This document shows positions 21,415-37,136 of a stretch of DNA of 53,480 bases, one piece after another. The stretch is from the IMG/VR virus record IMGVR_UViG_3300047557_000938, positions 1-53,480 of that record. One strand, given 5' to 3'. Source of the stretch: a virus. A model generated the notes under the pieces. The model was not told the origin of the DNA and made no database searches. It saw nothing but the letters and a program-made list of their open reading frames with translations. Made by a program: the position numbers and the translations under genes. Numbering within the stretch: the first letter of the stretch is position 1; each line of letters begins with the position of its first letter.

Positions 21415-22097
21415 CGTTGCGCTCCTTCTTGTCGACCAAGATTAGGCCATAGTTCCTCGTCCCGCATGGCGTGACCCCAGAAATGTGCCGCGACCGTTTC
21501 CTCGAAAATAACAGGTTGTTGGTTGGGCATGAACGGGTTGCAGTAGCGGGACGTCCACACTTCGACGTGATCAAACTGTTCTTTCTTGACTGCGGTGAGT
21601 AGTTTCGGGCCGGTCACCCAGTCCATGCTTCGCCCCTCGGCGCGATGTACCGACTCTGGGATTGCTTCAATAACAGCGGTCATGAGTGGGTGTTGAGGGA
21701 CCGCTGCCATGAAGGCGTTGGAGATTAGCCACCCATCTACTTCGTAGGCCAGGAGGGCTTCGCGGTCACAGAAGTCGGTCGGCAGGGCGCGTATCGGTTT
21801 CATGTCGCAGTTGAGGTAGAGGCCGCCTTCGTTGTAAAGGATCTCGTAGGCTGCGATGTCGGCTTGCGTGACTTGGATCATGGTCGCTTCCTTAGCGTCA
21901 CCTCGCGCCGGTGTCCATGTGACCCCACAGGAATCGAACTCGGCTTGATTCTGCAGAGGCGGAAGATCTTCGTATCCCCAGTCGCGTAGTTCCCAGCCCG
22001 GGTTGAGGGCTATCCATTCCTCACCGAACCGCCGATACAAGTCCGGCATGGGTCGGGGGCCGAACCAGATGCGGTGCATCAGTTTGGGGATCGCCAC
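21405..22097 (-). CDS. Glycosyltransferase with DXD motif (OCH1/sug-binding type)
   Basis: A 230-residue protein beginning with GTG, AAGGAG five bases upstream. IPKLMHRIWFGPRPMPD at the start, YEILYNEGGLYLNCDMKPIR (the D-x-D-type sugar-nucleotide site is NCD-M) and HFWGHAMRDEELW near the end are typical of the glycosyltransferase sugar-binding DXD family (Gly_transf_sug). It belongs to a four-gene minus-strand operon with an epimerase and another glycosyltransferase, all overlapping, and so takes part in building a modified glycan. Confidence 0.8.
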   Translation of the reverse strand: MAIPKLMHRIWFGPRPMPDLYRRFGEEWIALNPGWELRDWGYEDLPPLQNQAEFDSCGVTWTPARGDAKEATMIQVTQADIAAYEILYNEGGLYLNCDMKPIRALPTDFCDREALLAYEVDGWLISNAFMAAVPQHPLMTAVIEAIPESVHRAEGRSMDWVTGPKLLTAVKKEQFDHVEVWTSRYCNPFMPNQQPVIFEETVAAHFWGHAMRDEELWPNLGRQEGAQRYN

Positions 22098-23092
22098 GTC
22101 ACTCCTTCGTTGTCCTTGAACCACTGGACCGTTTCGCTGATTCCTTGGTCGAGGGGCGTGAAACTGTTCGGATCGATGCCGATCACTTTTAGGGTGCTTG
22201 TGTCGGCTGACACGACGGTGCCGAGTTGCTTGACGGTGCGCCTGACGTCGATGGGCCGGAGTTCTGGGGCGGCGGATAGTACGGCCTTGACAACGGCGTC
22301 GACGGCTTGTGGGGTGGCGAGTGGGCCTCCCTCGGGTTCGCCGGGGCGCATCGGGACGGCTTCGATGATTGCCCCACCGACGGCGCTAGACACGGCTTGT
22401 GCGACTTCGAGGACCGTGTGTGGCATGGGGTTGCCTACGTCAATGGGGTAGTCGGGAATGATGCCTTGATTGGCGGCTTCGAGTGCGGCGACGAAGCAGC
22501 GAGCCACGTCTCGAACGTGGACGGAGTCGCTGTATTGAACACCGCCGCCGTAGAGCCTCATGGGATCTCCTGAGAGGGCTGAGCAGACAAACGATGGAAC
22601 GATTTTGCGGACCTTAGAGGGCCCGTAGGGGGCCGGGGCTGACTGGCGTGGCCCGTAGGCGTTCATGGGCCGTACGGCCACGATTCGGGCTCCTCGGTCC
22701 TCCCTGTACATGCCGACGAACTGCTCCCCCGTCGTTTTCGTTATGCAGTAGGTGCCTCGGCCGATACCTGAGTTCCCTACGGCGGCGAACACGCAGGGCA
22801 GGTCGTAGCGGGCTGCCGCCTCGAACACGTTGAGGGTGCCGACGATGTTGGTTTCTGCTGCGGGGCCGGGGTTGTCGATGGTCTCGGCGGTCCCGAGGAC
22901 TGCCGCGAGGTGGATGATGCCGTCGACGTGTGCGGCGAGTTCTTGCACGATTGTGGTGTCCCGTACGTCTCCGTAGAGGCCCCAGCCTTTACCGCGATGG
23001 TCGAGGACGAGTGCCTCGTGGCCTTTGGCTTCGAGTTCCGCTAGTACCCACGATCCGATGAAGCCGTGTCCACCGGTTACGCCAATCTTCAT
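22079..23092 (-). CDS. NAD-dependent sugar epimerase/dehydratase (extended SDR)
   Basis: A 337-residue protein with ATG in an ATGA overlap and GAGGAG upstream. MKIGVTGGHGFIGSWVLAEL is the NAD-binding Rossmann motif, GIIHLAAVLGT follows, and GTYCITKTTGEQFV holds the catalytic Tyr-x3-Lys. RPMNAYGPRQS is the usual substrate-loop sequence of UDP-glucose-4-epimerase and GDP-mannose-dehydratase relatives. It makes an activated sugar for the two adjacent glycosyltransferases. Which nucleotide sugar cannot be read. Confidence 0.85.
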   Translation of the reverse strand: MKIGVTGGHGFIGSWVLAELEAKGHEALVLDHRGKGWGLYGDVRDTTIVQELAAHVDGIIHLAAVLGTAETIDNPGPAAETNIVGTLNVFEAAARYDLPCVFAAVGNSGIGRGTYCITKTTGEQFVGMYREDRGARIVAVRPMNAYGPRQSAPAPYGPSKVRKIVPSFVCSALSGDPMRLYGGGVQYSDSVHVRDVARCFVAALEAANQGIIPDYPIDVGNPMPHTVLEVAQAVSSAVGGAIIEAVPMRPGEPEGGPLATPQAVDAVVKAVLSAAPELRPIDVRRTVKQLGTVVSADTSTLKVIGIDPNSFTPLDQGISETVQWFKDNEGVTWRSPN

Positions 23093-23733
23093 TTGAGACT
23101 CCTCACGACTGCTCGCCAATATCCTTCATCAACGCCCAGGCTTATGTTGTGATCGGCGAGACGATAAATGTAGTCGGCTTGCTGACTCGCTGTGAAGCGG
23201 GCTTGTTGTTTGGCGCAGCCGATCCAGAACGCCCAGTCCTCGAAGAGCATGTCGCGGAAGGGGTTCCCGTGCCAGAGCCACTTGCGAAATGGGGAGCCAG
23301 AGAAGACAAGATTGTTCTCCACATCAAGAACGTCTTGATGCCTGAAGTCGGAGGGCAGAAGGTTGTAGGCGCCTTGCGGGCTATTGACTTGGATGCCGAA
23401 CATGAGTATGTCGGCGTCTTCGGGTAGATGATTGAAGGCGTGGGGTAGAAGTAGATCGTCCACGTCCATCTTGCATATCCACTCGGTGTCGCAGGCTTGG
23501 ATAGCCTCATTGACGAGAACTTGCGGGTGATGGCTGAACGTTGTGGTGGAGCGGATTACGGTTCCGCTGCACGGCATGTCTTTCACCATACTAAGAAGGT
23601 CACTTGTTATCAGTTCGGTGACTATCCCATAACAGTCGGGTGCGGTTTCAAGCCGAGCGGCGGCCTCGATCCATTCCGGCAGAAAGGCTCTGTATGTGTC
23701 GCCGTGGACGACGGTGACGAGCCCGATGCTCAC
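23089..23733 (-). CDS. GT-A (family 2-like) glycosyltransferase
   Basis: A 214-residue protein starting with GTG in a GTGA overlap. MSIGLVTVVHGDTYRAFLPE, then CDTEWICKMDVDDLLLPHAF (metal-binding D-x-DD) and FEDWAFWIGCA in the acceptor region identify a GT-A fold enzyme. It is coupled to the epimerase gene downstream and the peptidoglycan-binding gene upstream, an unusual mix that suggests action on a cell-wall or virion glycan. Confidence 0.78.
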   Translation of the reverse strand: MSIGLVTVVHGDTYRAFLPEWIEAAARLETAPDCYGIVTELITSDLLSMVKDMPCSGTVIRSTTTFSHHPQVLVNEAIQACDTEWICKMDVDDLLLPHAFNHLPEDADILMFGIQVNSPQGAYNLLPSDFRHQDVLDVENNLVFSGSPFRKWLWHGNPFRDMLFEDWAFWIGCAKQQARFTASQQADYIYRLADHNISLGVDEGYWRAVVRSLK

Positions 23734-30384: not shown

Positions 30385-30610
30385 ACCGTTGAGGGTGCCA
30401 AACGAGTACGAGCGTGCTCAGTTAGACATCGTGAAGGACATAAACGAAACAATCATAAAGAACATTGAACGGAATAAGGCTCTCTCCAAGGATCGCCGCG
30501 AGCGAGTCCTCTCCCTCCTGGCTGAAGGCTGGTCGATGTACGGCATCGCTCTAGAAACAGGCATCACCCCCAACACCGTGAAGAGAATCGTGGAGTCCAA
30601 GCATGAGTGA
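30377..30610 (+). CDS. Small HTH protein, 77 aa
   Basis: AAGGAG lies 7-12 bases before the ATG. The C-terminal segment RVLSLLAEGWSMYGIALETG with ITPNTVKRIVES is a sigma-70-region-4 or resolvase-type helix-turn-helix. The N-terminal half is a charged helix (IVKDINETIIKNIERNKAL). It immediately precedes the DNA-modification operon and overlaps its first gene, so it may regulate it. Confidence 0.65.
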   Translation: MPRPLRVPNEYERAQLDIVKDINETIIKNIERNKALSKDRRERVLSLLAEGWSMYGIALETGITPNTVKRIVESKHE

Positions 30611-31412
30611 CGCACTCGAGATTGAAATGATCCCATTGAAAGACGTTCGACTGGACCCGAAGAATGCACGCTCCCACTCCGAGCGAAACCTAGAGGCGAT
30701 AATGGAGTCGCTGCGCCAGTTCGGTCAGCGCAAGCCCATCGTGGTCACTCACGACGGGATGGTCGTCGCCGGCAACGGGACCGTGGAAGCGGCACAAAAT
30801 CTAGGCTGGACTCAAATCTCCGCCACGCGTATCCCCGACGACTGGTCGCGGCAGCAGATCACCGCCTACGCGATTGCAGACAATCGAACTGCTGAACTCG
30901 CATCATGGGACTCCGAGATCCTCGTTCCAGCACTCGCCGAACTTGAAGCGGCTGGAATGTTGGAGTGGACAGGCTTCACTCAATACGAGTTGCAGAACTG
31001 GGACTCGCTGGCTCTGCGAGGAGGCCTGCCAGGTGGCGACTCCAGGTTAGACAACGACGAAGAGATTGACCCTGACGAGGAGCAAGGATCACTACTCGCA
31101 CTTGCGGATGTGACAGTTGCAGAGCCGAAACATGAAGTAGCGCAGCATGACATATTCATGCTCACTATGCCGAAGCATGATGTGACGCATGTCTTGATCG
31201 TTGCAAACGTGATGAAGGAATGGACCCTCTGGGCTGACTACTTACAAGGCGAAGCGATCTTCGTTCCCTTCCCTGATCCATTCATCACTGGAACGGACGT
31301 GGCTCGCAAACAGCCTCTTGTTTTAGTGCAACCCGATTACTACATGGCGGGTCATGTCCTCGACAAGCACGCCGCCTTCTATGGTGAAGAGCACGTAACG
31401 AGGATGCCGTGA
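30603..31412 (+). CDS. ParB-like protein of the 7-deazaguanine operon
   Basis: A 269-residue protein. Residues 10-70 (IPLKDVRLDPKNARSHSERN, FGQRKPIVVTHDGMVVAGNG, TVEAAQNLGW) form the ParB/Srx N-terminal domain; ADNRTAELASWDSEIL and FTQYELQNW follow. In ParB-methyltransferase fusions this region leads into a methylase; here the C-terminal 120 residues (HDIFMLTMPKHDVTHVLIVA and later DYYMAGHVLDKHAAFYGEEH) keep a vaguely similar layout but I see no SAM-binding FxGxG or DPPY motif. ParB-like proteins often sit next to DpdA in phages. It may bind DNA for the modifier. It ends in a GTGA overlap with dpdA. Confidence 0.75.
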   Translation: MSDALEIEMIPLKDVRLDPKNARSHSERNLEAIMESLRQFGQRKPIVVTHDGMVVAGNGTVEAAQNLGWTQISATRIPDDWSRQQITAYAIADNRTAELASWDSEILVPALAELEAAGMLEWTGFTQYELQNWDSLALRGGLPGGDSRLDNDEEIDPDEEQGSLLALADVTVAEPKHEVAQHDIFMLTMPKHDVTHVLIVANVMKEWTLWADYLQGEAIFVPFPDPFITGTDVARKQPLVLVQPDYYMAGHVLDKHAAFYGEEHVTRMP

Positions 31413-32308
31413 AGAAGAAGAACACAGGAGGCGGGACGTTCGACAAGAACGAGCAACCCGTCTACTTCATCGCGTCCGGCCCCACGCAACTAGAGATCGC
31501 GCAAGAGATCACCGACCATCTGCTTGTTGCCGTAAACGAGTTGGAATCCCCAAAAGCAATCGAACAGTTCGACAAGATGCTCGACACGGGAGCAAAGGTG
31601 TTTCTGGACTCCGGCATCTTCAACTTGACCAACAGGCACATGCGTGCCCACGGCATCACCATGGACGAAGCCCTAGCACTCGCGCCAGACGAGATTGACG
31701 GCTTCGACAAACTGTGGGACAACTACTGCGAGATTGTGACCCGATTCGCCAATCGCGTGTGGGGCTTCATCGAACTTGACCAAGGTGGAGCGATCAACAA
31801 ACGCAAGACTCGAGCGCGTATCGAAAAAGAAACAGGGTTGATTCCTGTTCCCGTCTATCATCCACTCAACGACGGCTGGGACTACTTCAATGAACTCGCA
31901 AAAGAATATGATCGGATCTGTTGCGGCAACGTCGTGCAGGCGAATCAAGCCACACGCAAGCGGTTGATTACAACCTTGTATGAACGGCAAAGACAGGATC
32001 ATCCCGATACTTGGATTCATTTCTTGGGCTTCACTCCGAACGAGTGGGTTCATGCGGCGCCGTTCTACGGCTCTTGCGACTCGTCCTCCTGGCTCGTGAA
32101 TGTCCGATGGTCCAGGGCGCATCGAAGTCAAGGAGCGTGCAAGCGGGTCGGTGGGTTCGTGTACGGCATGAGATACAAGTACGGCAGCGACTACACGGAC
32201 GACAACGGTTACGAGAGGGCTATCCGTTTCGCGGGAGCGCAAGGCGGCTGGTTCTTGGAGAAGTCTTGGAAGGCATACATGAACGAGAGGGAAGAGGTGT
32301 TCGGATGA
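31409..32308 (+). CDS. dpdA: DpdA-like DNA guanine transglycosylase
   Basis: A 299-residue protein of the TGT superfamily. KVFLDSGIFN (Asp67) matches the base-recognition Asp of TGT enzymes; IELDQGG (122-127), IPVPVYHPLNDGWDYFNEL, ICCGNVV and IHFLGFTP follow the barrel order; YGSCDSSSWLV places Asp224 where TGT has its catalytic nucleophile. It lacks the C-terminal zinc domain of tRNA enzymes, as DpdA proteins do. It would exchange guanine in DNA for a 7-deazaguanine, protecting the genome against restriction. The neighbouring QueD, QueE and FolE genes support this role over a tRNA role. Confidence 0.82.
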   Translation: MKKKNTGGGTFDKNEQPVYFIASGPTQLEIAQEITDHLLVAVNELESPKAIEQFDKMLDTGAKVFLDSGIFNLTNRHMRAHGITMDEALALAPDEIDGFDKLWDNYCEIVTRFANRVWGFIELDQGGAINKRKTRARIEKETGLIPVPVYHPLNDGWDYFNELAKEYDRICCGNVVQANQATRKRLITTLYERQRQDHPDTWIHFLGFTPNEWVHAAPFYGSCDSSSWLVNVRWSRAHRSQGACKRVGGFVYGMRYKYGSDYTDDNGYERAIRFAGAQGGWFLEKSWKAYMNEREEVFG

Positions 32309-32649
32309 CGGAAGTGTGGTGCACCTTCGAGAAGGTCGGGTTCCATCATTGGCCCGACGCGGCGGACATTCTTCCCCGTCGAGCGTATCTGTCGGATCGT
32401 CACAGGCATCTGTTCAAGATGCGGATCACCGTGCCCGTACTGCACGACGACCGCGACATTGAGTTTCATGAACTGCGCGACTACGCCGAGGAGTGGTGGC
32501 CCGAAGGCGGCGAGATGGGTTCCATGAGTTGCGAGGCAATAGCGCAATCGCTCGGGGCTCACATCATGGACGGGTTCCACATTCCGTGGGTTGAAGTTGA
32601 AGTGTCAGAAGACGGCGAGTGTGGAGCAAGCGTTAGGATGGAAACATGA
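32305..32649 (+). CDS. QueD-like (T-fold) protein of unknown activity
   Basis: A 114-residue protein coupled by overlaps to dpdA and queD. By eye it follows the T-fold pattern of the QueD encoded next: FHHWPDA (His14/15), DRHRHLFKMRIT (His33-x-His35) aligned with VHGHNYVVKVT, then DIEFHELRDYAEEWW with FLLDYNDLKPFGHWL, SCEAIAQSLGAHI with SAENMAQYFAFMV, and VEVSEDGECGA with VSVSETPKTWA (Glu102 for the pterin-anchoring Glu). The usual catalytic Cys before HxH is missing and a Cys76 occurs elsewhere. It could be a partner subunit or an enzyme that changes the deazapurine further. Confidence 0.65.
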   Translation: MTEVWCTFEKVGFHHWPDAADILPRRAYLSDRHRHLFKMRITVPVLHDDRDIEFHELRDYAEEWWPEGGEMGSMSCEAIAQSLGAHIMDGFHIPWVEVEVSEDGECGASVRMET

Positions 32650-33014
32650 CGTTCAGGATCAGTAAAGAGTTCTCATTCTCGTCATCGCATCAACTCCACG
32701 GGCTTAGAGAAGGCCACCCATGCGGTCGCGTTCACGGTCACAACTACGTCGTGAAGGTCACCCTGTCGGGTGAGAAGTTGAACGGCAGCGGGTTCCTGTT
32801 GGACTACAACGACTTGAAGCCTTTCGGTCACTGGCTGGACGACGAGTTGGATCATCGCCACTTGAACGACGTTCTCAACTTTCAACCCTCAGCCGAGAAC
32901 ATGGCGCAATACTTCGCCTTCATGGTGGAGAACACGGTGAACGTTCCCGAGGGAGTGAACATCAGCGTGTCCGTGTCGGAGACTCCTAAGACCTGGGCGA
33001 CCTGGGAGAACTGA
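32646..33014 (+). CDS. queD: 6-carboxy-5,6,7,8-tetrahydropterin synthase
   Basis: A 122-residue protein with all QueD hallmarks: SSSHQL (His15), PCGRVHGHNY (Cys26 nucleophile, His30 and His32 zinc ligands), LDHRHLND (catalytic His70/72 region) and SETPKTW (Glu112, which holds the pterin). QueD turns 7,8-dihydroneopterin triphosphate into CPH4, the second step towards preQ0. It starts in an ATGA overlap and ends in TGATG with queE. Confidence 0.92.
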   Translation: MTFRISKEFSFSSSHQLHGLREGHPCGRVHGHNYVVKVTLSGEKLNGSGFLLDYNDLKPFGHWLDDELDHRHLNDVLNFQPSAENMAQYFAFMVENTVNVPEGVNISVSVSETPKTWATWEN

Positions 33015-33736
33015 TGAACATGGCGGAAGAGATCGCCGAACTGAAACTCGTTCTAGATGTGAATGAGATATTCGGCCCCACCGTACAAGGCGAAGGCCCA
33101 TCGACGGGTGTTCGCTGCGCGTTCCTTCGACTGTCCGGCTGCAACCTCACTTGCGTATGGTGCGACACCCCGTACACGTGGGACTGGAAAGGTCAAAACG
33201 GCACGCCGTACTCCAAGGAAGCCGAAACGCACCCCATGTCGGTCCACGACGTATGGTTTCAACTAACCGGCTACGGTGTTCCCTTGTATGTCATCTCGGG
33301 CGGTGAACCCATGATGCAGCAGGAGGCTCTAGGAGCGTTGATCCCCCGACTCATGGCTGGCGGCAAACAAGTCGAGGTGGAAACGAATGGAACAATCAAG
33401 CCGAAGATCGAGCCCACCCGATTCAACGTGTCACCGAAACTCACTCACTCGGGAGTGCGCGAGAAGATCAGATTCAAGCCCGAAACGTTGAACGCCTACG
33501 TCGGTCGCTCCATTTTCAAGTTTGTGTGTCAGACAGTGAAAGACCTGGACGAAGTGATGTTCATGGCAGCCGAAGCCGACATACCCGACAGCGCGATTTG
33601 GATCATGCCCGAAGGACGCGACCCCGTAACACTCATGTCTCACGCCGAGGCGATCACGGACGAAGCGATCGCTCGAGGCTGGAACATCACAGGCCGACTT
33701 CACGTGATGACGTGGGGCGCAAGGAGAGGTGTATGA
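33014..33736 (+). CDS. queE: 7-carboxy-7-deazaguanine synthase (radical SAM)
   Basis: A 240-residue protein. [20 protein letters not shown] is the QueE signature, [18 protein letters not shown] carries the Cys43-x3-Cys47-x2-Cys50 cluster motif, and [10 protein letters not shown] the SAM-binding glycines. [11 protein letters not shown] and LQVMPEGRDP-like [12 protein letters not shown] follow. It rearranges CPH4 to CDG, making the deazapurine ring. It ends in an ATGA overlap with the FolE fusion gene. No QueC gene follows. Confidence 0.93.
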
Positions 33737-34605
33737 AACTCACATGGCAAGACATTGAGATCGAAGCCCGCAATCTGGCGAAGCGCTGGGCGGGTCGCTC
33801 CTTCTCAGGTGTCTACGGCGTGCCGCAAGGTGGAGTGCCCGTCGCGTTGATCGTGTCGGACCTTCTTGATCTGCCTATTCTTGACGAGCCAGACATTCAC
33901 GCCTTGATCGTGGATGATCTAGTGGACTCAGGTCGCACCCTCTCTAGATACAACCAGGCGTGCGACGCCCTGTATCGGAAGCCCCATTCACCGAATCATC
34001 TCGCTGTTGGAGCGACCGAGGTGGACGAGTGGTTGATCTTCCCGTGGGAGAAAGACGACGGCGATCCGAACGAGATCGTTGTGCGGCTCCTGGAGTACGT
34101 GGGTGAAGACCCGACTCGGGAAGGACTCTTGGACACACCGAAGCGAGTGTTGAAGGCGTTCCGTGAAATGACAGAGGGGTACAAGAAAGACCCCGGCGAG
34201 ATTCTCTCCACTGTGTTCAACGAGGACTTCGATCAGATGGTGTGCCTTCACAACATCGAGTTCGTGTCCATGTGCGAGCACCACTTGCAGCCGTTCCGTG
34301 GAACAGCCGCCGTCGGCTACATACCCAACGGGCAGGTCGTGGGTCTATCCAAGTTGGCTCGCCTCGTAGACGCCTACGCTCGCCGCCTTCAAGTGCAGGA
34401 ACGCATGACGGAGCAGATCGCTGCTGCAATGAACGAGCATCTTGCGCCCGCAGGAGTCGCCGTCTACATTGAAGCGCATCACTCCTGCATGGGTAACCGT
34501 GGTGTTCGCAAGCATGAAGGCCGCATGGTTACACAGAAACTGACGGGGCTCATGAAGGATGATGCCGCCGCACGCGCCGAGTTCATGGGGCTAGTTCAGA
34601 AATAG
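33733..34605 (+). CDS. folE: Phosphoribosyltransferase-GTP cyclohydrolase I fusion
   Basis: A 290-residue two-domain protein. Residues 1-110: [14 protein letters not shown] and the PRPP motif [14 protein letters not shown] (57-70), then [10 protein letters not shown] (98-106), where the Trp and P-W-E match the base-stacking end of guanine/xanthine phosphoribosyltransferases. Residues 112-290: [24 protein letters not shown] (zinc Cys181, His184), [28 protein letters not shown] and [12 protein letters not shown] (zinc Cys252), a complete type I FolE. FolE makes dihydroneopterin triphosphate from GTP. The fused transferase could recapture guanine released by DpdA as GMP. ATG lies in an ATGA overlap after AGGAGAGG. 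Confidence 0.9.
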
Positions 34606-34613
34606 GAGCATAG

Positions 34614-35084
34614 ATGACTGGCAAGAAGCCAGGGCGCAAGCCGCCGAAGGTCACAGATCAAAAGGTTCAAGACTTGATCAAAGCCTTGGAGTACGGCAAC
34701 TACATGGACGTGGCGTGCAAGATCGCTGGCGTCGGTGTGACGAGCGTGTATCGCTGGCTGAATGAAGGCGCGGAAGAAGCCAACAGGATCGCCGCAGGAC
34801 TGGAACCCGACTCCGATCGCGCCACATACATCGAGGTCATGCAGGCTATCGAGAAGGCTCGGAGCGAGGCCGAGGCTAGAAACGTGGCAATCATTCAACG
34901 CACCGCGCAGGAAGGCACATGGCAGGCGGCTGCCTGGTGGTTGGAGCGCACGCGACCCAACAAGTGGGGCCGTTATGTGCGCACGGAGGCTACGGCTCCC
35001 GAGGACACTAGCGTTGAGATGACAGTGAACGACGACGATTTGGAGTCCCTCGTGAATCGCATCCTGGGCGATGACTCTGATTGA
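34614..35084 (+). CDS. terS: Terminase small subunit
   Basis: A 156-residue protein with a basic N-terminus (KKPGRKPPK), an HTH at 31-52 (MDVACKIAGVGVTSVYRWLN), and IEKARSEAEARNVAIIQRTA then WQAAAWWLERTRPNKWGR, the usual small-terminase order. It binds the packaging site and regulates the large subunit, whose gene overlaps its end by 14 bp. Confidence 0.88.
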   Translation: MTGKKPGRKPPKVTDQKVQDLIKALEYGNYMDVACKIAGVGVTSVYRWLNEGAEEANRIAAGLEPDSDRATYIEVMQAIEKARSEAEARNVAIIQRTAQEGTWQAAAWWLERTRPNKWGRYVRTEATAPEDTSVEMTVNDDDLESLVNRILGDDSD

Positions 35085-36979: not shown

Positions 36980-37135
36980 ATGGATGCTCTCTACACGAAG
37001 CGACTCACGATCGATGTGGACGACTTCTACAACATTGTGAACGTCCTCCGCGACGCGTGCGGCTGCGAAGACTGCAAGCGCATCGCAAACGACCTACTTG
37101 ACCAAAATCGCAAGCAACTTCGAGAGGGGAACTGA
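36980..37135 (+). CDS. Small Cys-containing protein, 51 aa
   Basis: MDALYTKRLTIDVDDFYNIV then DACGCEDCKRIANDLLDQNR. The CGCEDC motif between two helices could bind one metal with a partner. The gene ends one base before the ATG of the ArdC-like gene. Function unknown. Confidence 0.55.
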   Translation: MDALYTKRLTIDVDDFYNIVNVLRDACGCEDCKRIANDLLDQNRKQLREGN

Positions 37136-37136
37136 C

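What the first reader, a model, noticed from the sequence alone, without database searches (positions are those of the whole stretch)
30603..34605. 7-deazaguanine DNA-modification operon without QueC
FolE, QueD, QueE and DpdA are all present and translationally coupled, but no PP-loop QueC is visible anywhere in the genome. QueE makes CDG; QueC would convert it to ADG and preQ0. Phages are known to carry dCDG, dADG, dPreQ0 or dPreQ1 in DNA. The base here may therefore be CDG, or the phage may borrow host QueC.
Basis: partly seen in the sequence, partly recalled or inferred. Interest (0 to 1): 0.78.

Follow-up and report, generated by a model that had tools for sequence, protein, structure and literature searches.

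The report
QueC swapped for QueD-like protein
This virus makes a modified form of the DNA letter G, and where its relatives keep the usual last enzyme (QueC) it carries a small, unstudied QueD-like protein, so it probably puts a different modified G into its DNA, most likely plain 7-deazaguanine.

Summary
In detail: FolE, QueD, QueE and DpdA form one overlapping operon (30603-34605), and QueC is absent from this genome, which carries a 127-bp terminal repeat. Between dpdA and queD lies a 114-residue protein, phrog_17812 (here "Tf"). Its predicted fold is that of QueD (pLDDT 94.9; best match E. coli QueD, Z 12.5). It keeps three His and one Glu that by order correspond to QueD's zinc and pterin ligands, but not QueD's catalytic Cys or Asp-His. 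In a sister phage this slot holds queC. Of 50 records 26 have QueC, 19 have Tf, none both, 5 neither. Tf travels with its own DpdA: flanking genes are 41-86% identical to the sister phage, while ParB C-terminus, DpdA and Tf match another lineage. Best explanation: Tf takes QueC's place and acts on CDG, most likely decarboxylating it to 7-deazaguanine, which its matched DpdA puts into DNA. The reaction is inferred, not shown. Borrowing host QueC is unlikely. CDG-derived bases and a CDG decarboxylase (DpdL) are recalled as published, in a paper I could not open.

The parts
30603..31412 (+). ParB_N-like protein with a ~115-aa C-terminal domain (31062-31412), translationally coupled to dpdA (4-base overlap)
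   Evidence: phrog_620 E 1.4e-38 over residues 1-160. The C-terminal domain was found in L111, L014, L018 and L013 by phmmer, plus a weak match in L120; all are Tf loci, none a QueC locus.
31409..32308 (+). DpdA, DNA guanine transglycosylase (299 aa, GTG start)
   Evidence: phrog_887 E 1.5e-23, phrog_7068 E 5.5e-5; Asp67, Asp124, Asp224 conserved in 26 of 26 rows. No stretch in IMG/VR matched its short peptide patterns; loci L111, L014, L018, L013 carry 43-53% identical DpdA.
32305..32649 (+). Tf (phrog_17812): 114-aa QueD-fold protein in the slot that holds queC in sister phages; proposed CDG-processing enzyme, most likely a CDG decarboxylase
   Evidence: phrog_17812 E 6.8e-26; AlphaFold pLDDT 94.9, pTM 0.86; best fold match E. 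coli QueD, Foldseek E 6.5e-6, Z 12.5, rmsd 2.2, 107 residues; not found with full-length QueC.
32646..33014 (+). QueD (6-carboxytetrahydropterin synthase), canonical HGH, Cys and LDH motifs
   Evidence: PF01242 E 1.1e-31; TIGR03367 92.1 bits, cut-off 89.25; PDB 4ntm E 1.6e-16.
33014..33736 (+). QueE (radical-SAM 7-carboxy-7-deazaguanine synthase); 1-base overlap with queD
   Evidence: phrog_2076 E 2.5e-59; Bsubt_queE E 5.5e-25, 88.3 bits, below that model's curated cut-off of 206.1.
33733..34062 (+). Shortened 6-oxopurine phosphoribosyltransferase-like domain, N-terminal part of the FolE polypeptide ([10 protein letters not shown] and FPWE motifs kept, flexible-loop region missing)
   Evidence: xanthine phosphoribosyltransferase model NF006613 E 1.4e-9, 37.6 bits, below its cut-off of 138; PDB 4z1o purine PRT E 7.2e-6; same shortening in other fused copies, not in separate XGPRTs.
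34063..34605 (+). FolE, GTP cyclohydrolase I domain, fused behind the PRT-like domain
   Evidence: PF01227 E 3.2e-71; 86% identical to sister phage L105.

Best explanation
A 7-deazaguanine DNA-modification operon in which QueC has been replaced in place by Tf (phrog_17812), a diverged QueD-fold protein. Shown by sequence: FolE, QueD, QueE and DpdA are present; QueC is absent; Tf occupies the queC slot; Tf and DpdA were exchanged together. Inferred: FolE, QueD and QueE turn GTP into 7-carboxy-7-deazaguanine (CDG). Tf holds CDG in a T-fold pocket (Glu102 on the guanine edge; a His14/His33/His35 metal site and Arg50/His47 at the carboxylate) and removes CO2, giving 7-deazaguanine. The co-exchanged DpdA, which has GN instead of GG in its putative substrate-recognition loop, swaps this base for guanine in phage DNA and so protects it from host nucleases. 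The PRT-like domain on FolE may return the guanine released by DpdA to GMP and so to the GTP pool that FolE uses. The general claim (Tf replaces QueC and the final base is CDG-derived, not preQ0) I put at about 0.8; decarboxylation specifically at about 0.5.
For: QueC absent by family profile, by a 28-member phage profile over six frames, and by motif. Closest relatives L104, L105, L107-L109 are DpdA-QueC-QueD-QueE-PRT:FolE; the window, L014 and L111 are DpdA-Tf-QueD-QueE-PRT:FolE. Exclusion: FolE-seeded loci 24 QueC only, 16 Tf only, 0 both, 4 neither of 44; whole records QueC 26, Tf 19, both 0, neither 5 of 50; 40 further Tf records: QueC above cut-off in 0, QueE in 35; 10 named Tf phages: QueE in 10, no full-length QueC. 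Fold: pLDDT 94.9, best match E. coli QueD Z 12.5; His14, His33, His35, His47, Arg50, Glu53, Glu102 identical in 52 of 52 non-redundant members. Mosaic against L105: HTH 69%, ParB N-terminus 49%, then no match in ParB C-terminus, DpdA and Tf, then QueD 62%, QueE 68%, FolE 86%, TermL 71%; the unmatched stretch is 31-53% identical to L111, L014, L018 and L013. The Tf label needs 3 changes on the DpdA tree (0 of 500 shuffles as low) but 8 on FolE (195 of 500) and 7 on QueE (85 of 500). DpdA loop GG in 12 of 13 QueC-type rows against 1 of 11 Tf-type rows. In L111 DpdA and Tf share one reading frame.
Against: No reaction was measured; decarboxylation rests on pathway position, fold and recalled chemistry. 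Tf is not always tied to QueE: Streptomyces sp. NEAU-Y11 has Tf-QueD-FolE-deaminase but no convincing QueE in its genome (best 21 bits), though that Tf has lost Glu102; Aurantimonas sp. has an intact Tf and no convincing QueE (20.8 bits). QueC and Tf do not cover all cases: 5 of 50 records have neither, and in Mycobacterium phage Bipper no QueC was found in the whole record and no Tf in its cluster. One Tf phage, D479, has a partial PF06508 match above the cut-off far from its cluster. Metal binding is inferred from order and topology; no coordinates were inspected. The records include near-copies, so the Fisher p of 1.2e-8 is not corrected for relatedness. The DpdA tree was the quick method, with 4 starred of 20 inner branches and long branches. 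The L111 fusion rests on one metagenomic contig and its DpdA part is short.
Confidence: 0.55

Rival explanations
1. The base in DNA is CDG itself (dCDG). DpdA inserts CDG directly; Tf binds and delivers CDG to DpdA or blocks its use elsewhere, without changing it.
For: QueE's product is CDG and no QueC follows. Hutinet 2019 suggested CDG for Mycobacterium phage Bipper, which lacks QueC (PMC6884629, passages). The DpdA-Tf single reading frame in L111 would suit a delivery protein. dCDG in phage DNA is recalled from Cui et al. 2023, not read.
Against: Tf keeps a complete set of invariant polar residues (His14, His33, His35, His47, Arg50, Glu53, Glu102), more than a binding protein would seem to need. 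Bipper, the precedent for CDG, has no detectable Tf in its cluster.
Confidence: 0.2
2. Tf turns CDG into some other 7-substituted deazaguanine, for example a handle that other phages then glycosylate.
For: A ~350-residue gene with weak glycosyltransferase similarity lies near Tf in 69 of 109 Tf loci and in 0 of 30 QueC loci.
Against: The window lacks that gene, and of seven other DpdA1-type Tf loci asked (L013, L014, L018, L111, L115, L120, L122) only L122 has it. No reductase or activating enzyme is visible in the operon.
Confidence: 0.13
3. The host supplies QueC and the phage DNA carries dPreQ0 or dADG; Tf is an unrelated accessory.
For: Hutinet 2019 discusses phages that could rely on host deazaguanine precursors (passages). 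C. glutamicum, an actinobacterium, is among the controls in which PF06508 rings.
Against: The sister phage keeps its own QueC in the Tf slot. Tf and full-length QueC exclude each other in every record set examined. The DpdA that travels with Tf has an altered loop.
Confidence: 0.07
4. Tf is the real QueD (it keeps the HxH motif) and the annotated QueD has another job.
For: In part of the Tf loci the annotated QueD has HGY instead of HGH.
Against: Here QueD is canonical. HGH or HGY does not follow Tf or QueC: in DpdA1 loci HGH occurs in 11 of 13 QueC loci and in 8 of 11 Tf loci. Tf lacks QueD's catalytic Cys and Asp-His.
Confidence: 0.04

Closest known systems
Phage preQ0 pathway (FolE, QueD, QueE, QueC, DpdA), e.g. 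Rosebush, CAjan (Hutinet et al. 2019, PMC6884629, passages seen)
   Same: FolE, QueD, QueE and a DpdA in one cluster; gene order of L104, L105, L107-L109 identical apart from the QueC slot.
   Different: QueC replaced by Tf; DpdA of another lineage.
Mycobacterium phage Bipper (KU728633), the published QueC-less case
   Same: ParB-like gene, DpdA, a small unknown gene (gp4), QueD, QueE, FolE, terminase in the same order; no QueC.
   Different: A further small gene (gp2) before dpdA; gp4 is not detectably Tf; its model is low confidence (67.5) with only weak T-fold matches, Z about 5.
DpdL, CDG decarboxylase, and dDG/dCDG phages (Cui et al. 2023, NAR gkad657; recalled, paper not held)
   Same: Same predicted step: CDG used without QueC.
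   Different: I could not check whether DpdL and phrog_17812 are the same family.
QueD / PTPS (E. coli QueD, 4ntk)
   Same: Tf has the same fold, Z 12.5 over 107 residues, and three His plus a Glu that correspond by order to QueD's ligands.
   Different: 19% identity; Leu29 where QueD has Cys; no LDH motif; not hit by PF01242.

Membership tests
Phage 7-deazaguanine DNA-modification operon | DpdA transglycosylase with conserved catalytic Asp | tested here: met
   phrog_887 E 1.5e-23; Asp67 and Asp224 conserved in 26 of 26 rows. Their catalytic role is recalled from TGT.
Phage 7-deazaguanine DNA-modification operon | FolE, QueD, QueE for CDG synthesis | tested here: met
preQ0-type (group 2) phage pathway | QueC (PF06508) | tested here: not met
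   0 places in the record; 0 in unfiltered six-frame search
dG+ / dPreQ1-type phage pathway | Gat-QueC, ArcS or QueF | tested here: inconclusive
   Gat-QueC excluded by the QueC search. QueF models match only the FolE domain weakly: PF14489 19.6 bits, cut-off 27.3; TIGR03139 31.5, cut-off 86.9. ArcS and QueF were not searched for in the rest of the genome.
phrog_17812 (Tf) | Profile match and family invariant residues | tested here: met
   E 6.8e-26; all residues invariant in 52 of 52 are present
QueD / PTPS enzyme (for Tf) | T-fold | tested here: met
   Z 12.5 to 4ntk, Foldseek E 6.5e-6
QueD / PTPS enzyme (for Tf) | Catalytic Cys before HxH and Asp-His pair | tested here: not met
   Leu29 at the Cys position in 52 of 52 members; no LDH motif in the aligned members. 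Tf is not filed as QueD.
DpdL (CDG decarboxylase) | Homology to the published DpdL and CDG decarboxylation | not testable with these tools
   Paper not held; no held paper ties DpdL to 7-deazaguanine
XGPRT-type phosphoribosyltransferase (N-terminal domain of FolE) | PRPP loop and 6-oxopurine motifs | tested here: met
   [10 protein letters not shown] and W-x-x-FPWE, aligned; NF006613 E 1.4e-9 but far below its cut-off
XGPRT-type phosphoribosyltransferase (N-terminal domain of FolE) | Flexible catalytic loop between hood and PRPP loop | tested here: not met
   Missing here and in the other aligned fused copies; present in separate XGPRTs L003, L045, L058, L022

The most novel reading that the evidence does not exclude
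phrog_17812 is an unrecognised class of T-fold enzyme, a QueD paralogue turned into a metal-dependent CDG decarboxylase, widespread in phages and prophage-like loci. It is exchanged as a cassette with a DpdA of matching base specificity, and in many phages it feeds a base that is then glycosylated. The shortened PRT fused to FolE recycles the guanine that DpdA releases, closing the GTP budget of genome-wide modification.
Probability: 0.22. Interest if true: 0.8.

Novelty: new variant of a known kind. Interest (0 to 1): 0.6.

Why it matters
It gives a testable answer to what QueC-less phages put in their DNA, names a candidate enzyme for that step in a family still listed as 'unknown function' in PHROGs, and shows that the choice of base (QueC or Tf) and the DNA-inserting enzyme move between phages as one cassette. 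That makes DpdA base specificity and Tf chemistry directly testable with two genes in laboratory E. coli.

Tried and rejected
Tf as a substitute QueD: rejected, the HGH/HGY state of QueD does not follow Tf or QueC. A PP-loop enzyme hidden elsewhere: none. Tf by sequence in the PDB: only chance hits (bacterioferritin, best E 0.18). Bipper gp4 as a diverged Tf: not shown; profile score -1.9 bits, low-confidence model from two sequences, no Foldseek match at E<=0.001, best VIA Z 5.7 with several T-fold proteins among the rows but none at Z 8. DpdA peptide patterns in IMG/VR found nothing. QueE-seeded scans gave few loci: 6, 3, 1. PaMx25's annotated ORF before folE is not in the PRT frame, so it was dropped from the PRT reading. 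Pfam gave no family for the ParB C-terminal domain; its reading as a methyltransferase remnant is by eye only. No host was assigned. A held QueC-family paper (PMC13329287, passages) and one on carboxymethylcytosine (PMC12783734, passages) gave no word on DpdL. I found nothing in print about phrog_17812 or a PRT-FolE fusion in searches, but most subscription papers are not held.

Rows dropped before counts: the conservation count used 52 non-redundant of 91 Tf sequences; the structure alignment used 38 sequences; whole-record searches used 50 of 57 handles first asked for (short contigs, L102 and the window left out); one search used 40 of the 80 Tf-seeded records (those of about 25 kb or more not yet searched; three more of the 80 were); L015, L102 and L001 are the same phage, ACP17.
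Full report
Observation. The six genes from 30603 to 34605 all lie on the + strand and overlap by one or four bases: ParB-like, DpdA, a 114-residue protein, QueD, QueE, and a PRT-FolE fusion. Small and large terminase follow at 34614 and 35071. The window is the whole IMG/VR record and has a 127-base direct terminal repeat. QueC is absent by Pfam profile, by a profile of 28 phage QueCs over six frames, and by motif.

The overlooked gene. The 114-residue protein (32305-32649), called Tf here, matches phrog_17812, listed as unknown function. tblastn found it in 15 phage records; ten distinct phages were fetched, among them ACP17, Xanthomonas X1, Cellulophaga phiST and Sinorhizobium Phosso. Ten of ten have QueE and none has a full-length QueC; D479 has a 69-position partial match above the cut-off far from its cluster and X1 one below the cut-off. 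In IMG/VR at least 598 stretches encode relatives; 80 loci were kept.

What Tf is. In 52 non-redundant members His14, Leu29, His33, His35, Phe37, His47, Arg50, Glu53, Phe54, Ser75, Glu77 and Glu102 are invariant. Profile comparison with phage QueDs gives 86.9% probability. The AlphaFold model (38 sequences, pLDDT 94.9) has the T-fold order of strands and helices, and E. coli QueD is the best solved match (Foldseek E 6.5e-6; Z 12.5, rmsd 2.2, 107 residues). By order along the fold, His14, His33, His35 and Glu102 fall where QueD has its zinc ligands and its pterin-binding Glu (QueD roles recalled). QueD's Cys is Leu29 in Tf and its Asp-His motif is absent. Tf therefore looks like a QueD paralogue that cannot use QueD's mechanism but could hold a guanine-like ring next to a metal.

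Tf takes QueC's place. Loci found with the window's PRT-FolE were chosen without regard to QueC or Tf. Of 44, 24 have QueC only, 16 Tf only, none both, 4 neither, three of these four in loci of under 10 kb. Over whole records, 26 of 50 have QueC, 19 have Tf, none both, 5 neither (L096, L099, L100, L129, L137). In 40 further Tf records QueC above cut-off is found in 0 and QueE in 35; six had weak matches below the cut-off. The closest relatives (L104, L105, L107-L109) have DpdA-QueC-QueD-QueE-PRT:FolE; the window, L014 and L111 have DpdA-Tf-QueD-QueE-PRT:FolE.

The cassette. Against sister phage L105 the window matches before the operon (RusA 60%, HTH 69%, ParB N-terminus 49%) and after Tf (QueD 62%, QueE 68%, PRT 62%, FolE 86%, TermS 41%, TermL 71%), but the ParB C-terminus, DpdA and Tf have no match there; these are 31-53% identical to L111, L014, L018 and L013. 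On trees of the same 26 loci the Tf label needs 3 changes for DpdA (0 of 500 shuffles as low), 8 for FolE (195 of 500) and 7 for QueE (85 of 500). DpdA and Tf thus tend to move together. Where QueC-type DpdAs have a GG pair (12 of 13 rows), Tf-type DpdAs mostly do not (1 of 11 rows), with GN in the window's clade (near-copies included). From TGT knowledge (recalled) this loop contacts the 7-substituent. In L111 DpdA and Tf lie in one frame.

Mechanism. Shown: gene content, replacement, co-exchange, predicted fold. Established for the families: FolE, QueD and QueE make CDG; DpdA exchanges guanine in DNA. Inferred: Tf decarboxylates CDG to 7-deazaguanine, with metal and Arg50 at the carboxylate and His47 as proton donor. 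Decarboxylation is preferred over simple delivery because of the many invariant polar residues and because dDG, dCDG and a predicted CDG decarboxylase DpdL are recalled from Cui et al. 2023 (paper not held). If DpdL is phrog_17812, the enzyme family is known and this is a new arrangement of it.

The PRT domain. The first ~110 residues of the FolE polypeptide are a purine phosphoribosyltransferase-like domain. It is fused to FolE in 14 loci, 3 of Tf and 11 of QueC type, window included; separate XGPRT-like genes occur in many other loci. The aligned fused copies lack the flexible loop, so activity is open. A salvage role for guanine released by DpdA is an inference.

Results against. Streptomyces sp. 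NEAU-Y11 carries Tf with QueD, FolE and a deaminase but no convincing QueE, and that Tf lacks Glu102; Aurantimonas sp. has an intact Tf and no convincing QueE. So the family is not bound to CDG everywhere. Bipper, the published QueC-less phage, has another small gene in the slot (gp4) that could not be tied to Tf. A glycosyltransferase-like gene near Tf in 69 of 109 Tf loci and 0 of 30 QueC loci hints that in other phages the base is modified further; the window lacks that gene.

Verdict. Observation confirmed; interpretation partly supported; a new variant of a known kind of DNA-modification operon, with a clear candidate for the missing step.

Noticed in passing
window 31062-31412: C-terminal domain of the ParB-like protein, found only with Tf-type DpdA (L111, L014, L018, L013, weakly L120). 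By eye it keeps methyltransferase-like start and end motifs without a catalytic DPPY; no Pfam match.
   Followed up: partly
L001, L002, L003, L008, L147, L152, L164 and others, next to Tf: A ~350-residue protein (weak glycosyltransferase similarity) lies near Tf in 69 of 109 Tf loci and 0 of 30 QueC loci.
   Followed up: partly
L148 10001-12108 (Streptomyces sp. NEAU-Y11): Chromosomal Tf-QueD-FolE-deaminase set without QueE and with an altered Tf; may be a natural-product cluster.
   Followed up: partly
L111 5770-6873: DpdA and Tf in one open reading frame on a metagenomic contig, DpdA part shortened.
   Followed up: partly
L174 2047-2472 (Mycobacterium phage Bipper gp4): Unknown 141-residue protein in the QueC/Tf slot of the published QueC-less phage, found only in Bipper-like mycobacteriophages.
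   Followed up: partly
L122 3416-4213, L005 5404-6306: Tf joined to a PIG-L deacetylase-like part and, by eye, to an HNH-like part.
   Followed up: no
L164 10318-11928 and L162: Large protein beside Tf and QueD in Magnetospirillum with only a weak match to archaeal TGT (TIGR00432, E 0.0023); possible DpdA of another type.
   Followed up: no
window 2496-3548 and 22079-23119: Glycosyltransferase (phrog_7162) and, on the - strand, a nucleotide-sugar epimerase, far from the operon.
   Followed up: no
window 37098-37502: Weak match to an anti-restriction protein family (phrog_7245, E 4.9e-5).
   Followed up: no
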